Shown here: positions 2,955 through 38,646 of the stretch, piece by piece | Position numbering within the stretch: position 1 is the first letter of the stretch | How the letters are laid out: each line of letters starts with the position of its first letter | Source of the DNA: Coriobacteriales bacterium OH1046 | Lineage (GTDB): Bacteria; Actinomycetota; Coriobacteriia; Coriobacteriales; Atopobiaceae | Direction of reading: 5' to 3' | NCBI GenBank assembly: GCA_004010535.1 | Contig: RQYE01000002.1 | Location: forward strand, 227,854-291,853 | DNA: 64,000 bases | Notes under the pieces: model-generated | The model's database searches: none | The model's input: only the letters and a program-made list of their open reading frames with translations | What the model was told of the DNA's origin: nothing | Program-made: the position numbers and the translations under genes

Positions 2955-3034
2955 GAACATCCCGGCATGATCGCGAACATCACCGGGGTGATCGCGAACA
3001 TATGTGGTGTGTTCATGAACACGGCGGGATGTTC
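2955..3034 (+). repeat. Family-1 palindromic array, copy A
   Basis: This 80-bp element has GAAC at offsets 0, +20 and +41 (2955, 2975, 2996) and GATC/GTTC at +35, +56 and +76 (2990, 3011, 3031). An extra GAAC at 3017 mirrors a GATC at 2969. Units read GAACATC-N-CCGG-N-ATGATCGC. It lies in the 299-bp gap between rpsJ and the next gene. The same offsets recur at 4092, 5705, 22865 and 38567. I recognise no named repeat here. Confidence 0.85.
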
Positions 3035-3171
3035 GAAAAGAGTGCTTCGCAGGTCCTCGAAAGCGCTGCCTGTGCATCCTCTTGCAGCCCGCCCGCCAGT
3101 TGATAACTGGATGCCAGCTATCCGAAAAACCCGTCTGATACGATTTCCTCCCCATCGAACGAGGAGGTAGG

Positions 3172-4107
3172 ATGCACGCGGTGATCAGCCATTCCAGCGC
3201 GCTGATGTTTCTCGATCAGTGCTCGCGCCTCGTGCCATTTCCTGCGTTCAGGACCCAGGTCGTAGCTTTCGGCGATCCGATCGGGGCATGTGCGCACACG
3301 AAGAGGGAGCTTGCTGCGTTCCACCTTGATCGCTTCAGGCGCATGGGCAGGGATACCGACGTCCTTGTCCCCACGTTCAGGCAGAATAAACGGGTCGCAG
3401 GATATGTCCATCATGCCGCCGGCGGCAAGCTGCCGAAGGGGTCGTTGCTCGATGCGGGCGGGGGCGTGCTCGTGTGCTCGGCTCCGCTCGTGTTCGTGCA
3501 GCTGTGCCGGAGTCTTCCGTTGCTGCGTTGCATCAAGCTGGGCCACTTCATCTGCGGCACGTATTCCAAGGAGCCGAGCGTGCCGAGCGGCGTGGTAGAC
3601 CGGTACCCGCTCGCGGCAAAAGCGGAGCTCGAGGAATTTGTCCGCAAGGCGCATCATCTGCGCGGTTCCCGCAATGCCGCTGCGGCGCTCCCGTGGGTGC
3701 TGGAAGGCGCAGCATCGCCGAAGGAAACCGAGCTCGCCCTGCCGTTTTATCTGCCCGAGCATCTGGGCGGATACGCTTTCATCCCCCCGGAGATGAACTA
3801 TGGGGAGCGGCTCTCCGAGGCAGCTGGGAAGATCGAAGGTTCGGTCAACGCGGCCATCGATGTGTATTGGCCTGGGCAGAAGATCGGGTTCGAATACACG
3901 AGCTATGCCGAGCACGGCGACCCGCATAAAATCGGCGAGGACGAGCGGCGAAAGCTGGCGCTGCAAACCATGGACGTCCGTCTTGAGCTGGTGACCAACC
4001 AGCAACTCATAGATGATAGGCAGCTCATGGCCCTTGCGCAGCTGCTGGCAAACTACGGTGTTCCGAAAGCCGTTTCGGCGGATGCCGAAACGAACATCCC
4101 GGCATGA
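3172..4107 (+). CDS. Orphan PD-(D/E)XK-like (DUF559/AbiEi-C-like) protein
   Basis: A 311-residue protein with GAGGAGG directly before the ATG. Visible blocks are a SAPLVFVQLCRSLPL motif with HFICGTYS (about residues 103-132), HLRGSRNAAAALPW (162-175), SPKETELALPFYLPEHLGGY (182-201) and a C-terminal IDVYWP..KIGFEY..EH..KIGEDERR..L block with D230 and E241. That last block resembles the DUF559/AbiEi C-terminal nuclease-like fold, with D and E in the metal-site positions; a lysine at the third position is not obvious. The family role is unknown. No partner antitoxin, methylase or helicase is adjacent. A paralogue lies at 62737-63645. Array A is upstream, and array B overlaps the last codons. Confidence 0.7.
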   Translation: MHAVISHSSALMFLDQCSRLVPFPAFRTQVVAFGDPIGACAHTKRELAAFHLDRFRRMGRDTDVLVPTFRQNKRVAGYVHHAAGGKLPKGSLLDAGGGVLVCSAPLVFVQLCRSLPLLRCIKLGHFICGTYSKEPSVPSGVVDRYPLAAKAELEEFVRKAHHLRGSRNAAAALPWVLEGAASPKETELALPFYLPEHLGGYAFIPPEMNYGERLSEAAGKIEGSVNAAIDVYWPGQKIGFEYTSYAEHGDPHKIGEDERRKLALQTMDVRLELVTNQQLIDDRQLMALAQLLANYGVPKAVSADAETNIPA

Positions 4108-4171
4108 TCGCGAACATCTCCGGGATGTTCGCGAACACCCCCATGATGTTTGTGTGAGGATCGGGATGTTC
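4092..4171 (+). repeat. Family-1 palindromic array, copy B
   Basis: GAAC at 4092, 4112 and 4133; GTTC or GTTT at 4127, 4148 and 4168. This copy is the most symmetric: every forward half-site has a mirror around 4131.5, and the centre is the perfect palindrome GTTCGCGAAC at 4127-4136. The first 16 bases are coding (the last codons and stop of the nuclease-like gene), so the array abuts its 3' end. Confidence 0.85.
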
Positions 4172-4201
4172 GTGTTGAGCAATACTCTGGCTGCCCGTTC
4201 C

Positions 4202-4801
4202 TTACCAGCTCACGCCCTCCCACAGCGAGAAGAGATAGCTCTCGTCGAGCATGATGCCGCCTTCGCGGATGCTGGGCTCGGCGACGATGATCTCGAGCGC
4301 ATTGCCCTCATCGACCTGGATGGCTGAGACGTAGAACATGTTGGGGCGATCGTACTCGTCGTCGAAGCGGTACCAGCCCCAGAGCACCTCGTGGCCGTTG
4401 ACGGTCGTGCACATGAGCCCGCTCGTCTCGATGTCGGTGTAACGGCTGCCGAAGAGGCGGCTTCCCACGATATTGTCGGTATCGAGCTGGTAGAGAAGGT
4501 ATTTCTCGGCATCGTCGGAGGCGTAGGCGATGTCCACGCTGCCGCGCGCCCACAAACAGCCGATGCGCTCCTCGGCAACAGACGCGTCATCGGCAAGCGG
4601 CTCGTATTTGGCGGTTTCGAGCCAGTCGGGCAGACCCACCGTCACGTGCGGAGCCTCATCATCGTGCCACGGGACGATGATGACCGAGTCCTGAGCGGCG
4701 AGGTCGATCTCGATGGCGTTGGGCGACATGCCATCCCCGCAGGCGGCGAGCGGCAAACAGGCGAGAAGGGCTAGGGCGAGATAAAGCAGGCGCTTACGCA
4801 T
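4202..4801 (-). CDS. Hypothetical lipoprotein
   Basis: From the ATG at 4801 the protein has 199 residues: a lipoprotein signal MRKRLLYLALALLACLPLAAC with the lipobox cysteine at residue 21, then a soluble extracytoplasmic domain. The 27-bp longer open frame would put charged and polar residues ahead of the signal, so I use the internal start, preceded by a GGGAG-type ribosome site. I do not recognise the domain. It is convergent with the nuclease-like gene, and array B lies in the gap. Confidence 0.7.
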   Translation of the reverse strand: MRKRLLYLALALLACLPLAACGDGMSPNAIEIDLAAQDSVIIVPWHDDEAPHVTVGLPDWLETAKYEPLADDASVAEERIGCLWARGSVDIAYASDDAEKYLLYQLDTDNIVGSRLFGSRYTDIETSGLMCTTVNGHEVLWGWYRFDDEYDRPNMFYVSAIQVDEGNALEIIVAEPSIREGGIMLDESYLFSLWEGVSW

Positions 4802-4869
4802 GGATGCTCCCAACGGAGACGGTAACACAGCCAGTGTACGCCATCATAGATTGGTGAAAGCTCCGAGAC

Positions 4870-5088
4870 CTAGAGCCCTTCGAGCAGCTCCGAGAGCGTC
4901 AGGCCGAGGCTGGAGGCGATTTTCCTGAGCAGGTTGATGGTGGGAGCATGTTTGCCCTGCTCGATGGATGCGTAATACGTCCGATCGATGCCGGCCTGAT
5001 AGGCGAACTTCTCTTGGCTCAAGCTCGTCCGTTCAAGTCGGAGCGACTTGATGCGCTTCCCCAACGCTTGCTGAAAGACCTCGTCCAT
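4870..5088 (-). CDS. XRE-family HTH regulator (small)
   Basis: A 72-residue DNA-binding protein made almost entirely of a Cro/C1-type helix-turn-helix: ALGKRIKSLRLER, SQEKFAYQAGIDRTYYASIEQGKHAPTINLLRKIASSLG. Its size and layout resemble small autoregulators such as restriction-modification controller proteins, but no methylase or nuclease pair is beside it. The longer open frame to 5541 runs antisense through the next lipoprotein gene and is rejected. No clear Shine-Dalgarno precedes the ATG. It is divergent from the lipoprotein gene at 5185, with a palindrome at 5123 between them. Confidence 0.75.
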   Translation of the reverse strand: MDEVFQQALGKRIKSLRLERTSLSQEKFAYQAGIDRTYYASIEQGKHAPTINLLRKIASSLGLTLSELLEGL

Positions 5089-5122
5089 ACGGCGAAGTCT
5101 AAATACGCCTGCATTTTTGACA

Positions 5123-5138
5123 ACGGTACATATACCGT
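5123..5138. promoter_or_regulatory. Palindromic operator candidate between divergent genes
   Basis: ACGGTA-CATA-TACCGT, a perfect 6-bp inverted repeat with a 4-bp spacer, in an AT-rich stretch (GATATATACTTATC follows). It lies 35 bp upstream of the XRE start and 47 bp upstream of the lipoprotein start, where an autoregulator of both would bind. Confidence 0.5.
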
Positions 5139-5184
5139 AGTGATATATACTTATCAAACAGAGACGATGAAGGGATGATGACCG

Positions 5185-5646
5185 ATGAAGAAGTTCGATA
5201 GACTCCCGATTATGCTCGTTGTCCTTGCTTTGACGTTTGGAATAGCGGGTTGCAGCGATCGGGCAAACAACAGGCAAGATGAGCCGGCGGCCGTTGTCGA
5301 GCAAACCGATCCCAAGCTCGCACCGGAACCCGGATCCGATCCAGAACCAGTAGCTGCTGGGGAACGCGATGAAACATACATCCGCCCCGAGTTTCAAGAG
5401 TTCATCGATGCCTATTTGGATTTCTATCGCGAGTATGCAGAGTTCATGAAGTACTACGAAGAGCATCCTACTGATACTGATGTCCTGCTGAGGCTGGCCG
5501 ACATGATCGATCGTGAGGCAGATATGGTCCGTGTGGCTCACGAGTGGGAGGAAGATGACCTTACGAATGCCGAAGCAGCACTGCTCATTGAGGCGGAAGC
5601 CGAGATGCTCAGGATTACTGCTGATCTTATGGAAACATTGGACTAG
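5185..5646 (+). CDS. Hypothetical acidic lipoprotein
   Basis: 153 residues. A signal peptide ends in the lipobox IAGC (cysteine 23), followed by a Glu/Pro-rich linker (about 30-55) and an acidic helical domain rich in Glu, Asp and Tyr. An AAGGGATG site precedes the ATG. No domain recognised. It is divergently transcribed from the small XRE gene, so the two probably form one regulatory unit. Codon use is less GC-biased than in the flanking ribosomal genes, consistent with an acquired segment. Confidence 0.7.
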   Translation: MKKFDRLPIMLVVLALTFGIAGCSDRANNRQDEPAAVVEQTDPKLAPEPGSDPEPVAAGERDETYIRPEFQEFIDAYLDFYREYAEFMKYYEEHPTDTDVLLRLADMIDREADMVRVAHEWEEDDLTNAEAALLIEAEAEMLRITADLMETLD

Positions 5647-5704
5647 CTCTGCAATAACAGGGCTATTCCCCCTGCGCCGTGCGGGCTGGCAAGATATCCG
5701 TTAC

Positions 5705-5784
5705 AAACATCCCGGTATGATCGTGAACATCCTCTGGATGATCGTGAACATCCTCGGGATGTTCGCATTTCCCTAGGGATGATT
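5705..5784 (+). repeat. Family-1 palindromic array, copy C
   Basis: AAAC/GAAC at 5705, 5725 and 5746, with GATC, GTTC and GATT at 5740, 5761 and 5781: the same offsets as the other copies but more decayed at the outer sites. It is the third copy within 2.8 kb and sits 58 bp after the lipoprotein stop, in the 355-bp gap before rplC. Confidence 0.8.
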
Positions 5785-5860
5785 GTGGACCAGCTATTCT
5801 CAAGACACAAAACCCCGCACCAACCAAAAATCTCGAGGATACGCGCGGCTACGTGTGTTA

Positions 5861-6001
5861 ATCTAGTAAAGCTGCTCGCTCAGGGTGGGTCGTCCAGCTC
5901 TGCCACGGGCGCGCAGCACACCCGACGGATGTGGTCCGCTGGGAGCGTGCGGTAAGGGACCGCACGTAAAGGCCCATGACCACCGAAGGAAAGGACCAGG
6001 G
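5861..6001 (+). promoter_or_regulatory. Candidate promoter and structured leader of the rplC operon
   Basis: The terminator after rpsJ and the intervening genes mean rplC needs its own promoter. TAATCT at 5861-5866 is a possible -10; no good -35 is visible. The following 140 bases are GC-rich and hold a perfect 8-bp hairpin, CGTGCGGT at 5946-5953 and ACCGCACG at 5959-5966 with loop AAGGG, then GGAAAGGACC before the ATG. A ribosomal-protein-binding leader is possible but is not identified by motif. Confidence 0.4.
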
Positions 6002-6622
6002 ATGGTCAACACGATTCTCGGCCGCAAGCTGGGGATGACGCAGGTCTGGGACGAGAACGACAACGTCGTGCCCGTCACCGTCATCCAAGCCGGCCCCTGC
6101 ACGGTCTCGCAGGTGAAGACCAAAGCGACCGACGGCTACGACGCCGTCCAGATCGGTTTTGGCGAGATCAAACCCAAGCGCGTCAACAAGCCTCTCGCGG
6201 GCCACTTCAAGGCCCAGGGCGTCGAGCCCCTGCGCTACCTCCGCGAGGTGCGCGTCGAGAACGCCGAGGAGTACAAGCCCGGCGACCAGGTCACCGTGGA
6301 GATCTTCGCCGAGACCAAGGCGGTCGACGTCACCGGCACGTCCAAGGGCAAGGGCTTCCAGGGCACCATCAAGCGCTGGAATTTCTCCCGCGGCCCCATG
6401 ACGCACGGCTCCCGCAACCAGCGCCGTCCGGGTTCCATCGGCCAGTGCGCCTATCCCGCCCGCGTCCGCAAGGGCCTCCACATGGCCGGCCACATGGGCA
6501 ATGAGCGCGTTACCGTGAAGAACCTCAAGCTCGTGCGCGTCGATGCCGAGCAGAACCTCCTGCTCGTCAAGGGCGCCGTCCCCGGTGGCAAGAACGCCCT
6601 CGTCCAAGTCCATATGGCTTAA
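6002..6622 (+). CDS. rplC: 50S ribosomal protein L3
   Basis: L3 is an early assembly protein near the peptidyl transferase centre. I choose the ATG at 6002 (206 residues, starting [15 protein letters not shown]), because the longer frame from 5885 adds 39 residues of leader sequence. [22 protein letters not shown] is the conserved loop that reaches the catalytic site. First gene of a tight run: rplD starts 13 bp downstream. Confidence 0.97.
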
Positions 6623-6635
6623 AGGAGGGTAAGCA

Positions 6636-7262
6636 ATGGCACAGTATGAGATCAAGAACGTGGACGGCAAGAAGGCCGGATCCGCCGATCTTGCCGATGC
6701 CGTCTTCGGCATCGAGCCCAATATCCCCGTCATCCACCAGGTGATCGTCTGCCAAGACGCCTCCCTGCGTCAGGGCACCCACTCAACCAAGAACCGCCAC
6801 GAGGTCTCCGGCGGCGGCAGGAAGCCCTATCGCCAGAAGGGCACCGGCCGTGCCCGCCAGGGTTCCATCCGTGCCGGCCAGTGGACCGGCGGTGGCGCCA
6901 TCTTCGGCCCCCTGCCCCATAGCCACGCCAAGCGCATCAACAACAAGATGGTCAAGCTCGCCATGCGCTCCGTGCTCTCCGGCAAGGTCCGCGACGAGGA
7001 GCTCCATCTCATCGACAGCCTCGAGTTCGCCAAGCCCTCCACCAAGGAGGCCAAGGCCGTCCTCGAGGCCCTCGGTATCTCGGGTAAGCGCGTGACCTTG
7101 GTCGTTGCCGACGACGACATCAACACCTACCTGTCGTTCCGCAACCTTCCCAAGGTTTCCATCTTCGGCGTCTCCGAGGTCACCGCCCGCTTCCTCATCG
7201 ACAACGGCGCCCTCGTCATGTGCGCTGCTGTCGCCAAGCAGCTCGAGGAGGTGCTCGCATAA
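6636..7262 (+). CDS. rplD: 50S ribosomal protein L4
   Basis: 208 residues. L4 lines the nascent-peptide exit tunnel; the extended loop GGGRKPYRQKGTGRARQGSIR with GGGAIFGP is present. In enterobacteria L4 also represses its own operon; whether it does so here is unknown. An AAAGGAGGG site precedes the ATG. Its stop overlaps the rplW start by one base (TAATG), so the two are translationally coupled. Confidence 0.97.
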   Translation: MAQYEIKNVDGKKAGSADLADAVFGIEPNIPVIHQVIVCQDASLRQGTHSTKNRHEVSGGGRKPYRQKGTGRARQGSIRAGQWTGGGAIFGPLPHSHAKRINNKMVKLAMRSVLSGKVRDEELHLIDSLEFAKPSTKEAKAVLEALGISGKRVTLVVADDDINTYLSFRNLPKVSIFGVSEVTARFLIDNGALVMCAAVAKQLEEVLA

Positions 7263-7567
7263 TGAACTCCGCCTACAGCGTCATCATCCGCCCCATCGTC
7301 TCCGAGCGTTCCTATGACCTCATGGAGCAGGGAAAGTACACGTTCGAGGTCGCCAAGACCGCGGCTAAGGAGGAGATCGCCGAGGCTGTCGAGAAGCTCT
7401 TCGGCGTCCATGTCGTGAAGGTCAATACCATGTCGGTCAAGGGCAAGCACAAGCGCGTCCGCTACCAGACCATGGGCACCACCCGTTCGTGGAAGAAGGC
7501 TATCGTCACCCTCGCGGCTGGCGAGAGCATCGAGATCTTCGGCAACCAGCAGGTGGCCGCAGAGTAG
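7262..7567 (+). CDS. rplW: 50S ribosomal protein L23
   Basis: 101 residues from the ATG overlapping the rplD stop. L23 sits at the tunnel exit and docks trigger factor and SRP. The N-terminal IIRPIVSERSYDLMEQGKYTF signature and the VNTMSVKGKHKRVRYQTMG loop are present. A 143-bp gap with no gene follows before rplB, longer than the other gaps in this operon; I see no terminator or clear motif in it. Confidence 0.97.
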   Translation: MNSAYSVIIRPIVSERSYDLMEQGKYTFEVAKTAAKEEIAEAVEKLFGVHVVKVNTMSVKGKHKRVRYQTMGTTRSWKKAIVTLAAGESIEIFGNQQVAAE

Positions 7568-7710
7568 GTGATCCGCCCGCGCTCCGTGCGAACGGGGCTC
7601 GGGCATCTATGCCGCGCACTATGGATACGCGCGGTACCGTGGTAGTTCCGGTGTCGTCTCGCCACACCTTCGAGCGAGATGGCCAACGGAGAACAGAAGG
7701 GATTTGAGTA

Positions 7711-8553
7711 ATGGCAGTGAAGCACCTCAAGCCAACGAGCCCCGGCCGTCGTTGGCAGACGGTCTCCGATTTCGCGGAGATCACGACGGACAAGCCCGAG
7801 AAGTCGCTTCTCGAGCCCCTGCCCAAGAAGGCGGGCCGCAACAACAACGGCCGCATCACCACCCGTCACCAGGGCGGCGGCCACAAGCGCCAGTACCGCA
7901 AGATCGATTTCAAGCGCACCCATGATGACGTCCCGGCCAAGGTCGCTACCATCGAGTACGACCCCAACCGCAGCGCCCGCATCGCGCTCCTGCACTACGC
8001 AGACGGTTTCAAGGCCTATATCCTCGCTCCCGAGGGTCTCAAGGTCGGCGATACCCTCTACTCCGGCGCCTCCGGTGTCGACATCAAGCCCGGCAATGCC
8101 ATGCCCCTCTCCGAGATCCCCGTCGGCACCCTCGTGCACGCCGTGGAGTTCCAGCCCGGCAAGGGAGCGGCCCTCGCGCGTTCCGCCGGCACCTCGGTCC
8201 AGCTCATGGGCAAGGACAACGGCTATGCCGTCCTGCGCCTCCCCAGCTCCGAGCTCCGCCGCATCCTGCTCACCTGCCGTGCAACGGTGGGCGAGGTAGG
8301 CAATGCCGATCACGCCAACATCGTCGTCGGCAAGGCCGGGCGCAGCCGCTGGGCAGGCGTCCGCCCCACCGTCCGCGGCACGGTCATGAACCCGGTCGAC
8401 CACCCGCATGGCGGCGGCGAGGGCAAGAACCACACCTCCGGCCGTCCTTCCGTCACCCCGTGGGGCATCCCGACCAAGGGCAAGAAGACCCGCGATCCCA
8501 AGAAGGCGTCCAACCACCTCATCATCCGTCGTCGTAAGACGAAGACCAAGTAG
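7711..8553 (+). CDS. rplB: 50S ribosomal protein L2
   Basis: 280 residues, the usual L2 length. L2 binds domain IV of 23S rRNA, is needed for subunit association and lies close to the peptidyl transferase centre. [22 protein letters not shown] and the catalytic-region loop [13 protein letters not shown] are intact, as is the RRRKTKTK tail. rpsS starts 30 bp downstream. Confidence 0.98.
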
Positions 8554-8583
8554 TCGGAACACGAGTGAGTGGAGAAAGATAGC

Positions 8584-8844
8584 ATGAGCAGAAGTCTCAA
8601 GAAGGGCCCGTTCGTGGAGACTCGCCTCCTCGCGCGTGTCACCGCACAGAACGAGGCCGGCACCAAGGGGGTCATCAAGACCTGGTCGCGTTCCTCGACC
8701 ATCTATCCCGAGATGGTCGGCCACACCATCGCCGTCCACGACGGCCGCAAGCATGTTCCCGTATACGTTACCGAGTCCATGGTCGGTCACAAGCTGGGCG
8801 AGTTCGCACCCACCCGCACCTTCCGCGGCCACAAGGCGAAGTAG
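8584..8844 (+). CDS. rpsS: 30S ribosomal protein S19
   Basis: 86 residues from [12 protein letters not shown]; the upstream in-frame start at 8569 would add five residues and lacks support. S19 forms the 30S head with S13 and contacts the A-site tRNA region. The C-terminal [17 protein letters not shown] is canonical. Confidence 0.97.
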
Positions 8845-8858
8845 GGAGGTAGATCCGC

Positions 8859-9209
8859 ATGGCAAACAGCAATGAGGTCAAGGCCACAGCCAAATACGTG
8901 CGCACAGCCCCGCGCAAGGCCCGCATGGTCGTCGATATGATCCGCAACAAGTCCGTCGCCCAGGCGCTCGAGATCCTCCAATTCTCCAACCGTGCCGTCG
9001 CGGGCGACGTCGCCAAGGTCGTGCGTTCCGCAGTCGCCAACGCCGAGAACAACAACGGCATGCGCGGCGAGAACCTCGTCATCAAGGCCTGCTTCGTGGA
9101 CGAAGGCCCAACGCTGAAGCGCATCCGTCCCCGCGCGAAGGGTTCCGCGAGCCGCATCAACAAGCGTATGAGCCACATCACCGTCATCGTCGCACCGAAG
9201 GAGGCGTAA
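8859..9209 (+). CDS. rplV: 50S ribosomal protein L22
   Basis: 116 residues. L22 contacts all six 23S domains and its beta-hairpin forms the tunnel constriction with L4; the hairpin GPTLKRIRPRAKGSASRINKR is present, the region where macrolide-resistance changes arise in other species. GGGAGG precedes the ATG; rpsC starts 7 bp after the stop. Confidence 0.97.
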   Translation: MANSNEVKATAKYVRTAPRKARMVVDMIRNKSVAQALEILQFSNRAVAGDVAKVVRSAVANAENNNGMRGENLVIKACFVDEGPTLKRIRPRAKGSASRINKRMSHITVIVAPKEA

Positions 9210-9216
9210 AGAAGCT

Positions 9217-9930
9217 ATGGGCCAGAAGGTACATCCTACCGGTTTCCGCCTCGGCACCACCGAGAACTGGCGTTCCCGCTGGTACGCCGAGAACAAGAAG
9301 TATGCCGCCAGAGTCGGCTCCGATCTCGCCATCCGCGCATTCCTCGAGAAGCGCCTCAGCAACGCCGCGCTCTCCCGCGTCGAGATCGACCGTGCCGGCG
9401 ACAAGATCACCGTCAGCATCTACACCGCCCGCCCCGGCGTCGTCATCGGCAAGAAGGGCGCCGAGATCGACACCCTCCGCTCCGACTTGGAGAAGGTCGC
9501 CGGTGTCGAGAGGGGTATGGTTGCCGTGGACGTCATCGAGGTCAAGCGCCCCGAGCTCGACGCCACGCTCGTCGCCCGCTCCATCGCCGATCAGCTCGAG
9601 GGTCGCATCGCCTTCCGCCGTGCCATGCGCAAGGCAGTGCAGACCGCCCGCAAGTCCGGCGCCAAGGGCATCCGCATCCAGTGCTCCGGTCGCTTGAACG
9701 GCGCCGAGATGGGCCGTCGCGAGTGGTACCGCGAGGGTCGCGTACCCCTGCACACGCTGCGTGCCGTCATCGATTACGGCGAGGCCGTCGCCTCCACCAC
9801 CATGGGCGCCTGCGGCGTCAAGGTGTGGATCTACCACGGCGAGAAGCTCCCCGGCCAGGCTGCCCCCAAGCCCGCGCTCGAGGGCTCCGCGCGTCCCCGC
9901 CGCCCGCGTAACGAGAGGAGGGGCCGCTAA
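9217..9930 (+). CDS. rpsC: 30S ribosomal protein S3
   Basis: 237 residues with the KH domain ([13 protein letters not shown]) and the C-terminal S3 domain ([23 protein letters not shown]). S3 lines the mRNA entry channel and has helicase activity there. It ends in a basic Arg/Pro tail. The stop overlaps the rplP start by one base. Confidence 0.98.
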
Positions 9931-10355: not shown

Positions 10356-10357
10356 CC

Positions 10358-10573: not shown

Positions 10574-10590
10574 AGCCGGGAGAGATTGAC

Positions 10591-15903: not shown

Positions 15904-16058
15904 GTTGAATCCCTTCGACGGGCAGGGCGTGTCCCCCTGCTCTGCATTCGAGTATACCCGTGTTACGGCGAAATTTACAGGATGAGGTTGCTGCGGGGCA
16001 GGGACCGGGATGATGCGCTCGATGGCGGTGACTGCACGGCTACCAGAGGCATTGCCGC

Positions 16059-16138
16059 GGTGACAAGTCATTTGTCACGCCTGTCACCGGGGAGCATGGC
16101 GTGACAAATGACCTGTCCCCTTGTCACCCCCCTTGTCA
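16059..16138. repeat. GTGACAA...TTGTCAC dispersed repeat, copy 1
   Basis: Nested inverted repeats of GTGACAA and TTGTCAC: 16059-16077, 16100-16126 and a further TTGTCAC at 16132-16138. The block GTGACAA-N2-GACCTG-N-C-N-CCTTGTCAC recurs at 34033-34059. Both copies are within about 100 bp of a tRNA gene. No coding capacity. Confidence 0.5.
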
Positions 16139-16220
16139 CGTGCGGGCGCAGCGAAAGAGCTTCGAATCCCCGCGAGCGCTATGCACATGGGAACGCCCCG
16201 TTGCGGGGGCGCGTGCGATC

Positions 16221-22718: not shown

Positions 22719-22864
22719 CATCCGCATAGTAGAGACAGCACGTTTCATGTGGTCAGGGGCAGCGGTTCGGCGCGCACGATGGTGAGCCGACAGGGGCAGC
22801 TCACGCACCGTGCTTTATCACAGCTCGGTGAGCCCCTTCCGCATGACTGTCCCGACGTGATCGC

Positions 22865-22944
22865 GAACATCCCCGTATGGATGCGATCATCCTCGGGATG
22901 TTCGTGAACATCCCGGTGATGTTCGTGTTGTGTCTGGGATGTTC
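22865..22944 (+). repeat. Family-1 palindromic array, copy D
   Basis: GAAC, GATC, GAAC at 22865, 22885, 22906 and GTTC at 22900, 22921, 22941: all three right-hand half-sites are intact and the central GTTCGTGAAC is at 22900-22909. It starts 146 bp after the mfd stop, in the 417-bp gap before the Amadori-sugar operon. The rest of that gap holds the AT-rich promoter region. Confidence 0.85.
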
Positions 22945-30758: not shown

Positions 30759-30781
30759 CCGAGGGTGCCGATCTATCGGAT

Positions 30782-30897: not shown

Positions 30898-31016
30898 CGA
30901 GTGTATCGACCAGCTTAGGTTGGCACGTACCCAATCGTGTCCTAATCCTTCCGGGGACAGCCGCTCGCCCACCGAAGGGGGCTGCCCTGGATACCGCTCT
31001 CATCTCCAGCGACGCA

Positions 31017-31481: not shown

Positions 31482-32360
31482 ATGGCCGATACCATGCTGG
31501 GGGATCTGTGTGCCAGAATCGATGCCGAGACGGGTGCACGCACAGGCGCGCCGACCACCCACCCCGAGTTCGACCGGCTCGTGCGTACCATCTGGCGCCT
31601 CCGCCAGCCGGACGGCTGCCCGTGGGACAGGGCCCAGACGCACCTCTCGATCACCAAGAACATGATCGAGGAGGCCTACGAGGCGGTCGATGCCATGGCG
31701 GCGCAGGATGCCCCCCATACCCTCGAAGAGCTCGGCGACGTGCTCGAGCAGATCCTGCTCCACGCCCAGATCGGCGCAGATGACGGCGAGTACGATATCG
31801 ATGACGTATGCCGCAGCCTCAACGAGAAGCTCGTGCGCCGCCATCCCCACATCTTCGGCGATCCGGCTGCCTACGGTGCCGTGGGCAGCGCGGGCGAGGT
31901 CCTCGACATCTGGGACGAGGTCAAGAAGGCGGAGCGTGCGGAGGGCTTCGGGCCCCAGGGTCTGCTCGACTCCATCCCGCGCTCGTTCCCCGCGCTCATG
32001 CAGTGCCAGAAGCTCTCGCACCGCGCAGCCAAGGCGGGTTTCGAGTGGGATTCCGTGGATGAGGTGTGGAGCCAATTCGCAAGCGAGAGAGCAGAGTTCG
32101 AGGCTGAGGCACCGGGTAGCCGCGCGCGCATGCTCGAGTTCGGCGATATGCTGTTCGCGCTGGTCAACGTCGCTCGGCACGAGGGCTTCGATGCCGAGGA
32201 GGCCCTCGCGGCGTCGAACGCGAAGTTCCGCTGCCGCTGGAGCGCCATGGAGCAGCTTGCGGCCGAAGAGGGCGCGGGCATCGGTTCCTGCTCCACTGCG
32301 GAGCTGAACATTCTGTGGAATCGTGCGAAGGAGCGGGAATCGGGTCCCGCTGCATCTTGA
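31482..32360 (+). CDS. mazG: MazG nucleoside triphosphate pyrophosphohydrolase
   Basis: 292 residues from the ATG at 31482, with GGGGAGAG upstream. Two MazG-type all-alpha modules; the first has WDRAQTHLSITKNMIEEAYEAVDAM and ELGDVLEQILLHAQI with the metal-binding Glu and Asp residues. It hydrolyses NTPs to NMP and PPi, clearing aberrant nucleotides and in E. coli lowering ppGpp. The same frame is open upstream through an ORF6N domain behind an SOS box, so mazG may be SOS-responsive here. Confidence 0.9.
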   Translation: MADTMLGDLCARIDAETGARTGAPTTHPEFDRLVRTIWRLRQPDGCPWDRAQTHLSITKNMIEEAYEAVDAMAAQDAPHTLEELGDVLEQILLHAQIGADDGEYDIDDVCRSLNEKLVRRHPHIFGDPAAYGAVGSAGEVLDIWDEVKKAERAEGFGPQGLLDSIPRSFPALMQCQKLSHRAAKAGFEWDSVDEVWSQFASERAEFEAEAPGSRARMLEFGDMLFALVNVARHEGFDAEEALAASNAKFRCRWSAMEQLAAEEGAGIGSCSTAELNILWNRAKERESGPAAS

Positions 32361-32421
32361 TGGGATCGTTCCGTGGTATAACTGTAGGTAGCCGGAACCA
32401 CCCTTAAGACGAAGCAGAGGC

Positions 32422-32892
32422 ATGAGCACGGATCAGCCTACGACAACCCGCGCATCATCCGCCGCTCCTGCACGCGGCGAGCGCGCACGCGCCACGACGA
32501 GCGCGGGGAAGGCCAAGCGACCGCGCGATCCGGAATCCAGGCGTAGGCTCATCAAGGTGCTCGCCTTGGTCGTGGTCGCCTTCGCCATGCTCTATCGTCC
32601 CGCCCGCGGCCTCTATATAGCCTGGCGCACCGGCTATACGCTCGAGTCGCGCCGCGAGGCGCTTGCCGAGGAGAACAGGGAACTCGAGGAGGAAGTCGAG
32701 CAGCTGATGACGCGCGAGGGCATCGAGGATGCAGCTCGCAAGCACGGCTACGTCATGCCCGGGGAGACGAGCGTCAAAGTCGAGGGCCTCGAGGAGGAGC
32801 CCGCCCCAGAGCCTGCCGATGAGACCGCGCAGGACCTTCCCTGGTATATCCATGTGGGCGATCTGTTCTTCTTCTACGGAGAAGACGCGTGA
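32422..32892 (+). CDS. DivIC/FtsB-like septum protein
   Basis: 156 residues: basic Ser/Thr-rich cytoplasmic N-terminus (1-44), one membrane helix (about 45-63), an extracytoplasmic coiled coil (ESRREALAEENRELEEEVEQLMTREGIEDAARKHGYVMPGE, the FtsB/DivIC signature) and an acidic tail. It would join FtsL and FtsQ/DivIB at the septum. Its stop overlaps the ppx start by four bases. Confidence 0.82.
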   Translation: MSTDQPTTTRASSAAPARGERARATTSAGKAKRPRDPESRRRLIKVLALVVVAFAMLYRPARGLYIAWRTGYTLESRREALAEENRELEEEVEQLMTREGIEDAARKHGYVMPGETSVKVEGLEEEPAPEPADETAQDLPWYIHVGDLFFFYGEDA

Positions 32893-33881
32893 GCCGCGTC
32901 GCCTCGATCGATATCGGCACCTTCACCATGCGCCTTGCCATCGCCGACGTGGCCGACGGCCGCGTACGATCCATGCGGAAGCAATCCACCATCGTCGACC
33001 TCGGACAGGATGTCGACGCGAGCGGCATGCTGGCGCTCGACGCCATGCAGCGCGCCTTCCTCTGCGCCCGTGCCTATGCGCAGATGGCCAAGGAAGCGGG
33101 GTGCGTCGCGCTCTGCTGCACGCTCACGAGCGCCGCGCGCGATGCCGGCAACTCGGATGAGCTCATGGCCGCATTGGCCTCGCTCGGCATCAGCCCGCAG
33201 GTCATTCCCGGCGAGATCGAGGGCGCGCTCACCTTCCTCGGCGTTGCGCAGGACTTCCCCAGCACGCCCATCCTCGTCGCCGATAACGGCGGCGGGTCGA
33301 CCGAGCTGGCCTTGGGCCGGCTCGAGGGCCGCGCGCTCGATCTCAGGTGGGTGAGGTCGGTCGATGTCGGTTGCCGCCGCATGACCGATCGGTTCTTCTC
33401 GGATGATGGGCCCGCCGGGGAAGGAGCCCTGGCCGCTGCGCATGCGTTCGCCCATGATGGGTTCGCGGCGGCTCTCGAGACGATGCCGCGCGATCTTGCC
33501 CCCGAGCGCTTGGTCGTGTGCGGCGGAACCGCGACGAGCCTTGTCGCCATGGCAGCCCGCTTGGAACCGTATGACCCCGCATTCGTGCACCTGCACGGGC
33601 TTTCGCTTGCCGAGATCGAGAAGCTTGAGCGCGAGCTGGCGGCGCTTCCCGTAGGGGAACGCGGCAAGCTCGTCGGCCTTCAGGAGCAGCGCGCTCCGGT
33701 CATCCTCGGCGGGGCGGTCGCGGTGTCGGAGCTTTTGTCGGCAGCGGGCTTCCCATCCGCGCAAGCCAGCGAGAGCGACCTGCTCTTCGGCCTATCCATC
33801 GCGTGCGATGCCGCTGCCGAGGATACCATCTCCCCGGTCATTTGGAAGCCCGTCCTCTCGCGTTTGGCCGAAGAGGGATAA
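32889..33881 (+). CDS. ppx: Exopolyphosphatase / pppGpp phosphohydrolase
   Basis: 330 residues from a GTG that overlaps the divIC stop (GTGA). ASKHA-fold ATPase motifs: phosphate-1 ASIDIGTFTMRLAIADV and phosphate-2 ADNGGGSTELALG. The family cleaves terminal phosphate from polyphosphate or pppGpp. It resembles the short actinobacterial Ppx/GppA form, without the C-terminal HD domain of the E. coli enzymes. Confidence 0.88.
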   Translation: MSRVASIDIGTFTMRLAIADVADGRVRSMRKQSTIVDLGQDVDASGMLALDAMQRAFLCARAYAQMAKEAGCVALCCTLTSAARDAGNSDELMAALASLGISPQVIPGEIEGALTFLGVAQDFPSTPILVADNGGGSTELALGRLEGRALDLRWVRSVDVGCRRMTDRFFSDDGPAGEGALAAAHAFAHDGFAAALETMPRDLAPERLVVCGGTATSLVAMAARLEPYDPAFVHLHGLSLAEIEKLERELAALPVGERGKLVGLQEQRAPVILGGAVAVSELLSAAGFPSAQASESDLLFGLSIACDAAAEDTISPVIWKPVLSRLAEEG

Positions 33882-33898
33882 AATTGGAGCTGCCCTGT

Positions 33899-33983
33899 GG
33901 GGGCGTGGCGGAATTGGCATACGCAGGAGACTTAAAATCTCTCGCCGCAAGGATTGTGGGTTCGAGTCCCACCGCCCCTACCA
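33899..33983 (+). tRNA. tRNA-Leu (UAA)
   Basis: 85 nt including an encoded CCA. Acceptor GGGGGCG/CGCCCCT with a terminal G-T pair, discriminator A, anticodon loop with TAA (GACTTAAAATC), a variable arm of class II type and T loop GTTCGAGTCC. It begins 18 bp after ppx. Confidence 0.93.
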
Positions 33984-34032
33984 GCTGTTCTCCTCGATTC
34001 CCGCTTCCAATAGTGTCGGGAAGTGTCGCAGC

Positions 34033-34059
34033 GTGACAAGCGACCTGGCACCTTGTCAC
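34033..34059. repeat. GTGACAA...TTGTCAC dispersed repeat, copy 2
   Basis: GTGACAA-GC-GACCTG-GCA-CCTTGTCAC, matching the core of the block at 16100-16126. It lies 50 bp after tRNA-Leu. Confidence 0.45.
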
Positions 34060-34106
34060 GGGTACAGCTGCGGCCCGGTCGCGTTCCTCGCCGTTACCAG
34101 GTTGTT

Positions 34107-34144
34107 ATGAGCAAATCTTCCTACAACTCCGATCTGCTCATAGG
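34107..34144. repeat. Family-3 repeat, solo arm
   Basis: ATGAGCAAATCTTCCTACAACTCC through TGCTCATAGG. It differs from the arms of the inverted repeat at 53386-53528 at only two or three bases and has its own terminal ATGAGCA/TGCTCAT pair. It is found upstream of rnr. Confidence 0.7.
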
Positions 34145-34240
34145 TACCCCTCAGCCCTCGTCGGATATAAGGCCGACCGCAGTCCGCAGGGCTGGGGTAT
34201 ATCATGGAAGAAGGCAGCCCCGACAGCGACAGGTACCCCG

Positions 34241-36238
34241 ATGGCACGAAAACGCCCGGCTCCACCGAAAAAGAAGCACCGGAAAAAACCCCGCCAGCTG
34301 CTGACGGGGACGATGCGCGTGATCCGCGCGGGCCAAGCCAGCGTGGAGACGCCCGAGGGCATCTTCCGCGTGGGCCGCAACGGCATGCATGAGGCCATGC
34401 ACGGAGATACGGTCGAGATCTCGATCTCGACCTTCCGAGGCGAGAAGCTCGCGTGTGTGCAGCATGTCGTGACGCGCGCAACCACGAGCTTCCTCGGACG
34501 CTACGAGCTCGCCGACCCGCTGGGCGTGATCGTGCCGCTCGATGGCAGGATCAGCCACGACTTCTTCGTGCCGTCCGATGACCCTGCGCCCGGACGGCTC
34601 GGTGTCGCCGCAGGCGACATCGTGGTTGCACGCATCGTCGAGTATCCCACGCGCAAGAGCGCGGCTGTGGCGACGATCGAACGCCGTGTGGGCGCCGGAT
34701 CCGAGCTCGACGTACCGCTCGAGGCGCTCATCGCGAGCTACGGTCTGCCCACGGAGTTCTCACCCGCCGCGCTCGCCCAAGCGGAGACCCTCTCGCTCGA
34801 TGTCGAGCAGGCCCTTGCGGCAGAGCCGGATCGCGAAGATCTCCGAGACCTCCTTGCCGTCACGGTTGATCCTGCGGATGCGCGCGACTACGACGATGCC
34901 GTGGGCGCCGTGCGCTGTGCGGATGGCTACGAGCTCTGGGTGCATATCGCCGACGTCTCGGCCTATGTGGCGTGGAACGATGCCATCGACAACGAGGCCA
35001 AGCAGCGCGCCTGCTCGGTCTACCTCGTCGACCGCGTGCTGCCGATGCTGCCCGTGCAGCTCTCGAACGAGCTGTGCTCGCTGAAGCCCCATGAGGACCG
35101 CCTCGCCATGAGCGTGCATATGCGTCTCGACCGAAGCGGCCGGATCGTCGATGCTAAGGCCATGAGCTCGGCCGTCCGCTCATCCGCACGCCTCTCCTAC
35201 GATGAGGTCGATGCCATGCTGTGCGGCGAGCGGCCCGCTCCCACGCGCGAGATCGGCGAGGCGATCTCCGTGCTCGACGAGATCCGCTCCCTTCGGGAGC
35301 ACCTGCGCGTCCAGCGCGGATCGATCGATTTCGAGACCGTCGAGGCCAAGGTCATCCTCGATGAGGACGGCATGCCGACCGGCGTGTCCGTGCGCACGAG
35401 GACCCCTGCCACAAGCCTCATCGAGGAGGCCATGCTCGCCGCCAACGAGAGCGTGGCCGGGCTGCTTGCCGCCGCAGATGTCCCGAGCGCCTTCCGCGTC
35501 CACGAGTTCCCGTCCCCCGATGACCTCAAAACGACCATCCTGCCCCTGCGTGAGCTGGGCCTCATCCAAGGGGAGGAGGCTGCGGGGCTCGCGGCGGGCG
35601 ATCCCTTCGCCATCCAGGCGGTGCTCGAGCGCGCCAAGGGCACTCCGGGAGGCGAGCTGGCGTCCGCGCTGCTTCTCCGTGCGCAGAAGCGTGCCATCTA
35701 CCTGCCGCGCAACGAGGGCCATTATGCGCTGGCCGCACCCGCATACTGCCACTTCACCGCGCCTATCCGCCGCTATCCCGACCTCATCGTCCACCGCAGC
35801 CTCAAGGCGCTTTTACGCGGGCAACTCGGCTCGCGCGAGCAGGCCGAGATCCAAAAACAACTCTCTCAGATCTGCCGCAGCTGTTCTGACCAGGAGCGCG
35901 TGGCCGACGCAGCCGCCCGCGATTCGCAGGACATCAAGATGGCCGAGTTCTATAAGCCCCGCATCGGCGCGTCCTTCTCGGGCGTGGTGAGCGGATGCAC
36001 GGGCTACGGCCTCTTCGTCACGCTCGATGGTACGCATGCCGAGGGGCTCCTGCCCATCCGCGCGCTCGGAGACGAGTGGTTCGACTACGACGAGGCGCGC
36101 CTTACGCTCACAAGCACGGCAACAGGTGCCGTGTGGAGGCTCGGAAAACGCATCGCCGTCAAAGTGGAAGGCGTCGACATCGCACGGGGGCGTATCGACT
36201 TCGCGCTAGCGCATGGCGAGCCGCAGGGGCATAATTGA
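34241..36238 (+). CDS. rnr: Ribonuclease R/II family exoribonuclease
   Basis: 665 residues, shorter than the 813-residue E. coli RNase R. A basic N-terminus (RKRPAPPKKKHRKKPRQ), one or two cold-shock domains, the catalytic RNB domain with DPADARDYDDAVGA (metal-binding aspartates) and SVYLVDRVLPMLP, and a C-terminal S1 domain (FSGVVSGCTGYGLFVTLDGTHAEGLLP). It degrades structured RNA 3' to 5' and, with SmpB and tmRNA, non-stop mRNA; smpB is two genes downstream. Confidence 0.95.
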   Translation: MARKRPAPPKKKHRKKPRQLLTGTMRVIRAGQASVETPEGIFRVGRNGMHEAMHGDTVEISISTFRGEKLACVQHVVTRATTSFLGRYELADPLGVIVPLDGRISHDFFVPSDDPAPGRLGVAAGDIVVARIVEYPTRKSAAVATIERRVGAGSELDVPLEALIASYGLPTEFSPAALAQAETLSLDVEQALAAEPDREDLRDLLAVTVDPADARDYDDAVGAVRCADGYELWVHIADVSAYVAWNDAIDNEAKQRACSVYLVDRVLPMLPVQLSNELCSLKPHEDRLAMSVHMRLDRSGRIVDAKAMSSAVRSSARLSYDEVDAMLCGERPAPTREIGEAISVLDEIRSLREHLRVQRGSIDFETVEAKVILDEDGMPTGVSVRTRTPATSLIEEAMLAANESVAGLLAAADVPSAFRVHEFPSPDDLKTTILPLRELGLIQGEEAAGLAAGDPFAIQAVLERAKGTPGGELASALLLRAQKRAIYLPRNEGHYALAAPAYCHFTAPIRRYPDLIVHRSLKALLRGQLGSREQAEIQKQLSQICRSCSDQERVADAAARDSQDIKMAEFYKPRIGASFSGVVSGCTGYGLFVTLDGTHAEGLLPIRALGDEWFDYDEARLTLTSTATGAVWRLGKRIAVKVEGVDIARGRIDFALAHGEPQGHN

Positions 36239-36275
36239 TTCCCACAGATGCGGGACTGCCCGTACGAGGAGAGCT

Positions 36276-37112
36276 ATGAGCCAGACCAACATGACAGACG
36301 AGATCCTGCGCGCCGAGGGATATCTCATGCAGGATCACGACGAGCAGGCCATCGAGCTGCTCTCCCGCCTCGCCGAGGACGCGGAGGAGTACGTCGACCG
36401 CAACTGTCCCACCACGGAGTCACTCCAGTGGTTCGCGTTCCCGACCCTCTTCGACCGCCTCGCCTATCGCCGTGTCGAGGGCGATCCGCGCGAGCTCCGC
36501 GATATCGGCGAGCCGCTCGACCGCCTCTACAGCGATCTGGCGCTTGCCGCCGTCAAGATCGGCGACTACGAGACGGCCATCGAGTCCTTGAAGCAGGCCA
36601 TCCGTTGGAACCCCATGGATTGCGGCGCCCGTCTCGATCTGGCAGACCTCTTCCGCATCGCGGGGGATTCCCAAGAATACCTCGCCCTCACCTTCACGGT
36701 GTTCGAACGCGCAAGCGATGCACGCCATCTTGCCCGCGCCTTCCTCACCTTCGCGGACTACTTCGTGGTCTGCGAGAAGCCCAAGACGGCTGCAGCTGCG
36801 CTGCGTGCCGCCCGCAAGCTCGACGTGGATGATTCCGCGCTTGCAGCCGCTCTCGACCAAGCAGCGGGCACCGGACGCGATCCCGATTCCGTGACGGATG
36901 CCGAGGCGGCGGAGCTCCTCGCCGCCGAGGGCCTGCCCGACGGCGCCAACGCCGAGATCGCCATCTGCCTGCTCATGTGCGCATCGGATGCCGCCTCTGC
37001 CGGTGAGCGCGATCTCGCGACCGCGCTCACCCTGCGCGCACGCGATCTTGTGGGCGAGCCCGCCGCCATGGCCTTGCTCGAGCTTATCCGCAGCTCGGAG
37101 GCAGGTGAGTAA
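36276..37112 (+). CDS. TPR-repeat protein
   Basis: 278 residues from ATG 36276 (CGAGGAGAG upstream). Helical throughout, with TPR-like units around YSDLALAAVKIGDYETAIESLKQAIRWNPMDCGARLDLADLFRIAGD (about 85-130). No signal peptide or enzyme motif, so probably a cytoplasmic scaffold. It lies between rnr and smpB in one transcript, 1 bp from smpB, which hints at a link to RNA quality control, but the function is unknown. Confidence 0.8.
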   Translation: MSQTNMTDEILRAEGYLMQDHDEQAIELLSRLAEDAEEYVDRNCPTTESLQWFAFPTLFDRLAYRRVEGDPRELRDIGEPLDRLYSDLALAAVKIGDYETAIESLKQAIRWNPMDCGARLDLADLFRIAGDSQEYLALTFTVFERASDARHLARAFLTFADYFVVCEKPKTAAAALRAARKLDVDDSALAAALDQAAGTGRDPDSVTDAEAAELLAAEGLPDGANAEIAICLLMCASDAASAGERDLATALTLRARDLVGEPAAMALLELIRSSEAGE

Positions 37113-37113
37113 G

Positions 37114-37599
37114 ATGGCCCAAAAAGATGCCAAGGGCGGCCGCAATATCCGCGTCATCGCCAAGAACCGCTCGGCACGCCACGAGTATTTCATCGACGAG
37201 ACCTTCGAGGCGGGGCTGGTGCTCACCGGTACCGAGGTGCGCAGCCTCCGTGAGCGCGCCTGCCAGATCACCGACGCGTTCTGCCTCATACGCGGCCGCG
37301 AGGCATGGCTGCACGGCGTCCACATCCACCCTTACAGCCACGGTACCGTATGGAATGTCGATCCAGACCGCAAGCGCAAGCTCCTGCTCCACAAGAGCCA
37401 GATCGACTATCTCGACAGCAAGCTCCGCGCCAAAGGCGTGGCGCTCGTGCCGCTCGAGCTGTTTTTCGATGAGCATAACCGGGTGAAGCTCACCATCGGC
37501 CTCGGTCGCGGCAAGAAGCTTTACGATAAGCGCGACGATATGGCGCGTCGCGATACCGATCGCGAGATCCAACGTGCGTTGAAGGAGCGCAACCGCTAG
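37114..37599 (+). CDS. smpB: SsrA-binding protein SmpB
   Basis: 161 residues. Carries tmRNA into stalled ribosomes for trans-translation. OB-fold blocks NRSARHEYFIDETFEAGLVLTGTEVRSLR, AWLHGVHIHPYSHG and the C-terminal GLGRGKKLYDKRDDMARRDTDREIQRALK, whose basic tail enters the mRNA channel. GGAGG inside the preceding gene serves it. No tmRNA gene is visible nearby. Confidence 0.97.
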   Translation: MAQKDAKGGRNIRVIAKNRSARHEYFIDETFEAGLVLTGTEVRSLRERACQITDAFCLIRGREAWLHGVHIHPYSHGTVWNVDPDRKRKLLLHKSQIDYLDSKLRAKGVALVPLELFFDEHNRVKLTIGLGRGKKLYDKRDDMARRDTDREIQRALKERNR

Positions 37600-37633
37600 G
37601 GGAGCGGGGGCGCTTGGAATGGAGAGGAATACC

Positions 37634-38140
37634 ATGGATGCATCTGCGCTGTACAAGATCACGAGCGGGCTCTACGTGGTCTCGACCCAGGACGGGGATA
37701 CCGTGAGCGCCTGCCTCATTAACACAGGCCTGCAGCTGACGAACACCCCCTTCCAGATCCAGGTGGTCGTCAACAAGGAGAACTACACCGAGGGGGTGCT
37801 CGAGCGTTCGGGCCATTTCGCCCTCACGCTCGTCTCCGAGAAGGCCGACATGCCCTATATCGGCCGCTTCGGCTTCCGCAGCTCGCGCGACTTCGCCAAG
37901 TTCGACGGCGTATCCGTGGAGCATACGGTGTTGGGCGATCCCTACACGCCCGACAACGCCGTCGCGGTGATCGCCTGCAAGGTCGTGCAGATGCTCGATG
38001 TGGGCACCCACATGCTCTTCGTGGGCGAGGCCGTCGATGCCGCGTCCCTCTCGGACGATCCCCAGATGAGTTACAGCTATTACCACACGGTGCTCAAGGG
38101 CAAGACGCCGCCCAAGGCTTCTTCGTACATTCCGGAATAG
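37634..38140 (+). CDS. Flavin reductase-like FMN protein (Hrb N-domain type)
   Basis: 168 residues; I prefer ATG 37634, which has GAGAGG upstream. A flavin-reductase split-barrel domain: ALYKITSGLYVVSTQDGDTVSACLINTGLQLTNTPFQIQVVVNKENYT, LERSGHFALTLVSEKADMPYIGRFGFRSS. This matches the N-terminal half of the high-molecular-weight rubredoxin of clostridia, which passes electrons to flavodiiron NO/O2 reductases. A separate rubredoxin gene lies 146 bp downstream, so the two halves appear split. Confidence 0.82.
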   Translation: MDASALYKITSGLYVVSTQDGDTVSACLINTGLQLTNTPFQIQVVVNKENYTEGVLERSGHFALTLVSEKADMPYIGRFGFRSSRDFAKFDGVSVEHTVLGDPYTPDNAVAVIACKVVQMLDVGTHMLFVGEAVDAASLSDDPQMSYSYYHTVLKGKTPPKASSYIPE

Positions 38141-38286
38141 AGGCGGACAAGCTACCGTTCGGCGGTTTTTCGATACCTTGCACCAAGATCGTCATGTATC
38201 ACAGCGGGAGTTTTGGGTATCTATGAGAATAGAAATAACGGACGGCTTCTTATCGTTCAGAAGCCACGGATAAGGGGGTGTCTCCA

Positions 38287-38430
38287 ATGGGCTCAGAAAA
38301 GGAAACGTACACGTTCCGTTGTACCGTGTGCGGATGGGAATATGAGAGTGATTCCCCCGAGCTCCCCGAAGATTTCGTCTGCGAAGTATGCGGCGTCGGC
38401 CCTGATATGTTCGAGCTGGTTGAGGAGTAA
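38287..38430 (+). CDS. Rubredoxin-like protein
   Basis: 47 residues, too short for most gene callers. Two knuckles, CTVCGWEYE and CEVCGVGPDMFE, give the four iron-binding cysteines. The proline usual in the second knuckle (CPxCG) is glutamate. AAGGGGGTG precedes the ATG by 8 bp. With the flavin reductase upstream it probably forms an electron path to an oxygen- or NO-reducing flavodiiron protein elsewhere in the genome. The frame differs from the upstream gene (146-bp gap), so this is not simple readthrough. Confidence 0.9.
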   Translation: MGSEKETYTFRCTVCGWEYESDSPELPEDFVCEVCGVGPDMFELVEE

Positions 38431-38503
38431 TACGGTCGCTAAGCTCCACCGTGTACGAACAATTCAATAGGTGCCACGAACTGGCACGCAAGCAAGAAAC
38501 ACG

Positions 38504-38535
38504 AGCCCCGGAAACCTGAGAAGCCCGGGGCTTTT
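38504..38535 (+). terminator. Rho-independent terminator after rubredoxin
   Basis: AGCCCCGG, a loop, CCGGGGCT, then TTTT. A smaller hairpin GTGCCA-CGAAC-TGGCAC precedes it at 38471-38487. Confidence 0.85.
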
Positions 38536-38566
38536 GCTGTGGGCGGAGATTACCAGCTGCGATCGC

Positions 38567-38646
38567 GAACATCCCAGCCAACACACGAACATACCGAGGA
38601 TGATCGTGAACATCCCGGGGATGTTCGTATGGGAGTTGGGATGTTC
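38567..38646 (+). repeat. Family-1 palindromic array, copy E
   Basis: GAAC at 38567, 38587 and 38608; GATC, GTTC and GTTC at 38602, 38623 and 38643. The same six offsets as copies A to D. It lies 32 bp after the rubredoxin terminator and 82 bp before rph. Confidence 0.85.

What the first reader, a model, noticed from the sequence alone, without database searches (positions are those of the whole stretch)
2955..38646. Five 80-bp palindromic arrays with invariant helically phased half-sites
At 2955, 4092, 5705, 22865 and 38567 the sequence carries GAAC at offsets 0, +20, +41 and GTTC/GATC at +35, +56, +76. 23 of the 30 half-sites are exact and most others differ by one base, while offsets never shift. 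Spacing of 20-21 bp is two helical turns, and the offsets are mirror-symmetric (centre GTTCGCGAAC in copy B). Conserved spacing with drifting sequence between sites points to a multimeric DNA-binding protein rather than to a simple hairpin. All copies are intergenic and mostly just 3' of genes. I know no named element with this layout.
Basis: seen in the sequence. Interest (0 to 1): 0.85.

Follow-up and report, generated by a model that had tools for sequence, protein, structure and literature searches.

The report
Nuclease genes with private palindrome arrays
Five 80-base mirror-image DNA arrays in a bacterium belong to a scattered repeat family whose copies sit on both sides of one gene for a predicted DNA-cutting protein, and about half of the tested relatives of that gene have their own, mostly differently spelled, repeats on both sides, which suggests a kind of gene that likely recognises and may spread its private palindromes.

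Summary
The genome holds 17 arrays and a sister assembly 22. Spacing is nearly invariant: a gap-tolerant scan put 76 of 77 half-site pairs 20, 21 or 41 bp apart. The half-site is really the 9-mer GAACATCCC.

The arrays are not free-standing. Arrays 1 and 2 flank gene 3172-4107, with the same layout in the sister assembly. Its 311-aa protein has no Pfam hit; the predicted model has a Vsr/homing-endonuclease-like C-terminal half and, more weakly, an AbiEi-like N-terminal half. Its paralog at 62737-63687 carries a different array family. Across the bacterial family 35 of 66 tested homolog loci have related repeats on both sides, against 1 of 141 control genes. Of six such repeats tested, three have near-full-length copies elsewhere in their own genome and one has partial copies. 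Two further arrays of other sequence share a 20/41-42/20 dyad layout.

This works like a REPtron (RAYT gene plus REPs), but the enzyme is unrelated and the genome's RAYT gene is flanked by another repeat. Binding, cutting and mobility are inferred, not shown.

The parts
2955..3034 (.). Family-1 array 1, upstream of gene 3172-4107 and 3' of rpsJ
3172..4107 (+). Gene for a 311-aa protein, predicted AbiEi-like N-terminal half plus Vsr/homing-endonuclease-like C-terminal half; proposed partner of family 1
   Evidence: flanked by family-1 arrays on both sides
4092..4171 (.). Family-1 array 2; overlaps the 3' end of gene 3172-4107
5705..5784 (.). Family-1 array 3, the most degenerate of the five (3 mismatches to the spaced pattern)
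22840..22864 (.). Degenerate extra unit just upstream of array 4
   Evidence: family D3 (81% over 36 bases)
22865..22944 (.). Family-1 array 4
38567..38646 (.). Family-1 array 5, downstream of a terminator-like hairpin; no array at the matching site of G002 or G003
41104..41232 (.). Family-2 array copy (two dyads 104 bp apart)
62547..62730 (.). Family-2 array at the 3' end of gene 62737-63687 (dyads 42 and 104 bp apart)
62737..63687 (-). Paralog of gene 3172-4107 (56% identity), proposed partner of family 2; its start codon is uncertain
63841..63855 (.). Fragment of a family-2 unit on the other side of gene 62737-63687, close to the contig end
   Evidence: 15 identical bases, E 0.1, so weak on its own
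34111..34148 (.). Family-3 repeat; the same family lies on both sides of another homolog in G001 (L244)
53385..53532 (.). Family-3 repeats, two inverted copies

Best explanation
The arrays are dispersed copies of a palindromic repeat that flanks gene 3172-4107 on both sides, and that gene's protein, predicted to join an AbiEi-like DNA-binding half to a Vsr-type nuclease half, likely binds the phased half-sites as a multimer and likely spreads or keeps the repeat in the genome. Shown: the repeats, their fixed 20/21-bp lattice, their two-sided linkage to this gene in two assemblies, two-sided repeats (mostly of other sequence) at about half of the tested relatives of the gene, and copies elsewhere in the same genome for four of six such repeats, three of them near full length. 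Inferred from a predicted fold and conserved residues: DNA binding by the N-terminal half and cutting by the C-terminal half. Untested: that a cut at or beside an array, followed by repair, copies the array, which would make the scattered arrays passengers of the gene, as REPs are thought to be of RAYT genes.
Confidence: 0.5

Rival explanations
1. The arrays are operators: the protein regulates its own gene through the flanking arrays, as AbiEi antitoxins are known to do on inverted repeats (recalled), and the scattered copies are a regulon or decoys; no mobility is involved.
Against: Array 2 lies at the 3' end of the gene. Of 37 arrays classed, 12 lie between convergent genes and only 3 between divergent ones (15 tandem, 5 with one neighbour called, 2 overlapping a called frame). 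It does not explain a nuclease half with conserved residues.
Confidence: 0.2
2. The arrays are miniature repeats spread by another enzyme, for example the RAYT transposase, and their linkage to gene 3172-4107 is coincidence or capture.
For: Every one of the five genus genomes searched has RAYT-type genes, and the arrays look like mosaic extragenic palindromes.
Against: The RAYT loci of G000 (L096) and G001 (L097) carry a different flanking repeat and no GAACATCCC array; G003 has six RAYT-type genes and no array. Coincidence does not explain 35 of 66 against 1 of 141.
Confidence: 0.1
3. The arrays are binding sites of a chromosome-organising or regulatory protein unrelated to the nuclease-like gene.
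For: Fixed helical phasing and conserved half-sites.
Against: Narrow distribution: of 60 genomes searched, own included, only G000, G001 and G002 match, and only three assemblies in a collection with one genome for each of 84,980 species (own genome possibly left out). Does not explain the gene linkage.
Confidence: 0.07
4. The arrays act as RNA hairpins, such as terminators or 3'-end protectors.
For: Palindromic, often at gene 3' ends or between convergent genes.
Against: Arrays 1 and 5 follow ordinary terminator-like hairpins (sequence). Pairing of the variable arms is close to that of shuffled halves at most positions, and at central positions 29, 30 and 33 the two halves pair less than shuffled halves. 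No Rfam match apart from tRNAs.
Confidence: 0.05

Closest known systems
REPtron: RAYT (Y1 tyrosine transposase) gene flanked by REP palindromes (PMC3733652, passages and section 16 read)
   Same: Gene-specific extragenic palindromes on the flanks of a gene plus dispersed copies; several repeat families each with its own gene; places mostly between tandem or convergent genes.
   Different: The enzyme is predicted to be an AbiEi-Vsr-type protein, not a Y1 transposase; the 80-bp array with a 20/21-bp lattice has no GTAG or CGTC end tag; this genome's RAYT gene has other repeats.
Vsr / EDxHD-type homing endonucleases such as I-Bth0305I
   Same: Predicted fold of the C-terminal half and matching conserved acidic and histidine residues (the motif name is recalled).
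   Different: Free-standing gene between palindromic arrays, with an added N-terminal half; not seen inside an intron.
AbiEi antitoxins of type IV toxin-antitoxin systems
   Different: A nuclease-like half is fused on; a toxin partner was not looked for; repeats lie on both sides of the gene.
MITE with its parent insertion sequence
   Same: Short dispersed copies plus a gene-bearing unit with related ends.
   Different: No consistent target-site duplication; the flanking copies may be direct or inverted; the array is internally repeated.

Membership tests
REP/RAYT (REPtron) | Repeats flank a Y1 tyrosine transposase gene | tested here: not met
   RAYT loci L096 (G000) and L097 (G001) lack GAACATCCC arrays and are flanked by another repeat
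REP/RAYT (REPtron) | GTAG or CGTC tag at one end of the palindrome | tested here: not met
   The ends of the 37 arrays printed are mostly YAC-GAACATCCC / GGGATGTTC-GTG; tags as defined in PMC3733652 (search listing and passages)
REP/RAYT (REPtron) | Intergenic, mostly between tandem or convergent genes | tested here: met
   15 tandem, 12 convergent, 3 divergent, 5 with one neighbour called, 2 overlapping a called frame, of 37
Vsr / EDxHD-type nuclease | PD-(D/E)XK Vsr-like fold | tested here: met
Vsr / EDxHD-type nuclease | Conserved catalytic-type residues | tested here: met
   E185, D230, E241, H248, D257 invariant over 23 members; that they are the catalytic ones is inferred
Vsr / EDxHD-type nuclease | Cuts DNA | not testable with these tools
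   Needs an assay
AbiEi antitoxin | AbiEi fold in the N-terminal half | tested here: inconclusive
AbiEi antitoxin | Partner toxin gene (AbiEii) | not tested
   No toxin search was made; of the neighbours only 4870-5541 (HTH) and 5185-5646 (DUF6591) got Pfam names
MITE | Target-site duplication | tested here: inconclusive
   Best direct repeat near the ends averages 3.81 against 3.25 (sd 0.23) for shuffled flanks, without a common length or place; one array (L033) has GATAC on both sides
Described RNA families (Rfam) | Match at gathering score | tested here: not met
   Only three tRNAs in the window

The most novel reading that the evidence does not exclude
A new class of selfish genetic system: a many-membered family of AbiEi-Vsr-type nucleases, in nearly every genome searched of this bacterial family, in which each gene recognises a private, helically phased palindromic array and spreads both itself and gene-less arrays, independently of RAYT transposases.
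Probability: 0.4. Interest if true: 0.9.

Novelty: new variant of a known kind. Interest (0 to 1): 0.8.

Why it matters
Extragenic palindromes are common in bacteria, and the gene-linked class found in the literature here is tied to one enzyme family (RAYT). An unrelated, predicted nuclease family with many copies per genome (matches in 114 of 121 genomes of the bacterial family, own included) is here linked to diverse palindromic repeats. That would give an uncharacterised protein family a substrate, supply dozens of natural protein-DNA pairs for testing specificity, and help explain why intergenic regions of these genomes are mosaics of several palindromic repeat families.

Tried and rejected
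RAYT as the mover: the RAYT loci have other repeats. Phage origin: no phage-record match to array 4 with its flanks and no viral-contig match to the pattern. RNA family: no Rfam hit but tRNAs. Target-site duplication and outward extension of the palindrome: no consistent signal. A long transposon with half-arrays as widely spaced ends: the half-array scan of G000-G004 showed paired halves 33 or 54 bp apart (start to start) or single halves of arrays whose other half is degenerate, no widely separated pair recognised. A motif CTACCTGCG shared by several repeat families: exact in 5 of 15 families (8 hits in 3,958 bp against 0.19 expected), but not in family 1, and in the unguided 9-mer search the best shared word (8 of 15 families) did not exceed random window DNA (up to 10); a lead only. 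Defence-system library: one weak hit among 23 members. Literature: searches on Coriobacteria with REP terms (2 papers), DUF559/palindromic repeats/REP (19,828 loose matches, 15 listed), MTES_1575 (4), RAYT/REPIN with endonuclease and non-autonomous (6), AbiEi with inverted repeats and endonuclease (3), REP sequences with RAYT (7), EDxHD with Vsr (3): listings and abstract starts only, and none of those listed was seen to describe this link; many subscription papers are not in that library. Of PMC3733652 I read passages and section 16. Notebook slips, recounted: RAYT 8 of 12 (note: 9) and homologs 16 of 29 (note: 15); phylum sample 3 of 20 (note: 21); G004 dyads at 0, 20, 62, 82 (note: 61, 81); and 'none in G000/G001' for one search should read one weak match in G000, none in G001.
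Full report
Observation. In the whole genome G000 (2.38 Mb, 19 contigs) the spaced pattern with up to 3 mismatches gives 14 arrays and the reversed control none. A half-array scan adds three (C5:1049, C12:116212 and a short form at C1:546813), 17 in all; the sister assembly G001 has 22, one of them short; G002 has one (plus a lone 3-mismatch half match); G003 and G004 none. Of 60 genomes searched, own included, only G000, G001 and G002 match. In a collection with one genome for each of 84,980 species, matches fall in three assemblies: JAKPQM (Actinomycetes MAG), CAMOLV (Coriobacteriales MAG) and Atopobiaceae UBA1367 (the window's own genome may be left out there).

Anatomy. The conserved half-site is GAACATCCC. 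An array is half-site, 11-base variable arm usually ending YRC, two 19-bp palindromes joined by RY, arm, half-site. A scan allowing gaps of 3 to 33 bases found 77 half-site pairs in G000 and G001: 44 at 20 bp, 12 at 21, 20 at 41 and 1 at 17. In ten equal-length G000/G001 ortholog pairs the arms differ at 69 of 220 positions and other positions at 58 of 580; flanks of twelve pairs show 195 substitutions over 1,304 aligned columns with 74 indels. These pairs were chosen for equal length and include an inverted one, so searches are the unbiased test. Two ortholog pairs differ by exactly one inner unit, in opposite directions. One G001 array is a perfect 80-bp palindrome (C39). One array looks inverted in place (L010 against L028: 24 differences as aligned, 10 reversed).

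Turnover. Twelve of the 17 G000 arrays have an array at the matching place in G001; for the other five no matching place was searched. At site 38567 G002 and G003 have none. Of ten G001-only arrays, nine were tested against G000: two align across the junction and both G000 sites keep part of an outer half-site; the others align on one side or not clearly. The tenth, L029, has no array at its G000 counterpart near window 16050-16161, but the surroundings differ too. About a dozen loci embed the array in a mosaic of other palindromic repeats.

Generality. The paralog 62737-63687 has a family-2 array at its 3' end, and its G001 counterpart has that array on both sides with the same 42 and 104 bp dyad spacing. 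Family 3 of the window lies on both sides of a homolog in G001 (L244). A repeat with GACTGTACAGTC lies on both sides of homolog L155 in G000, and a flank with such repeats matches more than ten G000 places, one of them beside L155 (C1:324089). With one test (blastn between the two flanks of up to 500 bp, E at most 1e-4), 25 of 43 homolog loci in G000-G006 are flanked (three more had too little flank; six or more homologs of G002 and G004 listed were not fetched) and 11 of 25 in a second set (one more had too little flank; two repeat loci of the first, so 10 of 23 new). Together 35 of 66, some of them orthologs of one another. Controls: 0 of 58 window genes and 1 of 83 genes beside arrays or homologs. 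RAYT genes give 8 of 12. In a phylum-wide PF18741 sample 3 of 20 testable loci are flanked, one by 239-bp repeats at 85% (L202). The seven close homologs (L135, L136, L137, L138, L142, L143, L144) each have an array or repeat just 3' of the gene, five of them on both sides.

Dispersal. Of six flank repeats tested in G000-G004 and G006, L147 (G003), L152 (G006) and L144 (G002) recur near full length at 3, 7 and 3 other places of their genome, L137 (G004) in part, and L145 and L146 not away from the gene (in G006 40 of 50 candidates were scored). G000 gave one weak match and G001 none; relatives of the L147 repeat also occur in G002 and G004. Homologs occur in 114 of 121 genomes of the family, own included.

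Geometry. In G002, next to homolog L138, dyads CCACTTCGCGAAGTGG lie at 0, 20, 61 and 81; in G004 between rpsJ and rplC, dyads TTCGCGAA lie at 0, 20, 62 and 82. Both spans equal the 80-bp family-1 array, whose own dyad positions run near 0, 20, 41, 61 and 81.

Mechanism. Geometry, linkage and predicted fold point to a multimer of the AbiEi-Vsr-type protein on its own array. Cutting and copying are inferred. The nearest known arrangement is the REPtron; PMC3733652 (passages and section 16) describes gene-specific palindromes around RAYT genes and places between tandem or convergent genes much like these. Membership fails on the enzyme, the end tags and the RAYT's own flanks, so the claim is that it works like a REPtron, not that it is one.

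Limits. All assemblies seen with family 1 and named are metagenome assemblies; G001 has 6% contamination, G002 and G004 are 68% complete. Nearly half of the tested homologs lack detectable flanking repeat pairs. No consistent target-site duplication was found. Dependence of array copying on the gene is untested.

Noticed in passing
window 16099-16140 and 34027-34061: Copies of the repeat (TTGTCACG type) that flanks the genome's RAYT gene (G000:C12:120707-121033), a REP family different from the arrays.
   Followed up: partly
window 2531-6622: rpsJ and rplC, usually neighbours (recalled), are separated by about 3 kb holding several genes and three arrays; the content of this gap differs between genus members.
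   Followed up: partly
L010:1501-1580 against L028:2060-2139: The array appears inverted relative to conserved flanks between two species (24 differences as aligned, 10 when reversed).
   Followed up: no
L001, L006, L013 against L039: The three clustered arrays share one left arm in G000 and another in G001, as if arms are homogenised within each genome.
   Followed up: no
flanking repeats of L137, L142, L144, L146, L147: A central motif CTACCTGCG(C/G) recurs in repeat families of different sequence.
   Followed up: partly
L202 (G060:C19:242690-245869): A homolog in another family of the phylum is flanked by 239-bp inverted repeats at 85% identity.
   Followed up: no
L205 and L207 (G000): Two sites without an array keep part of an outer half-site, suggesting loss with a footprint.
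   Followed up: partly
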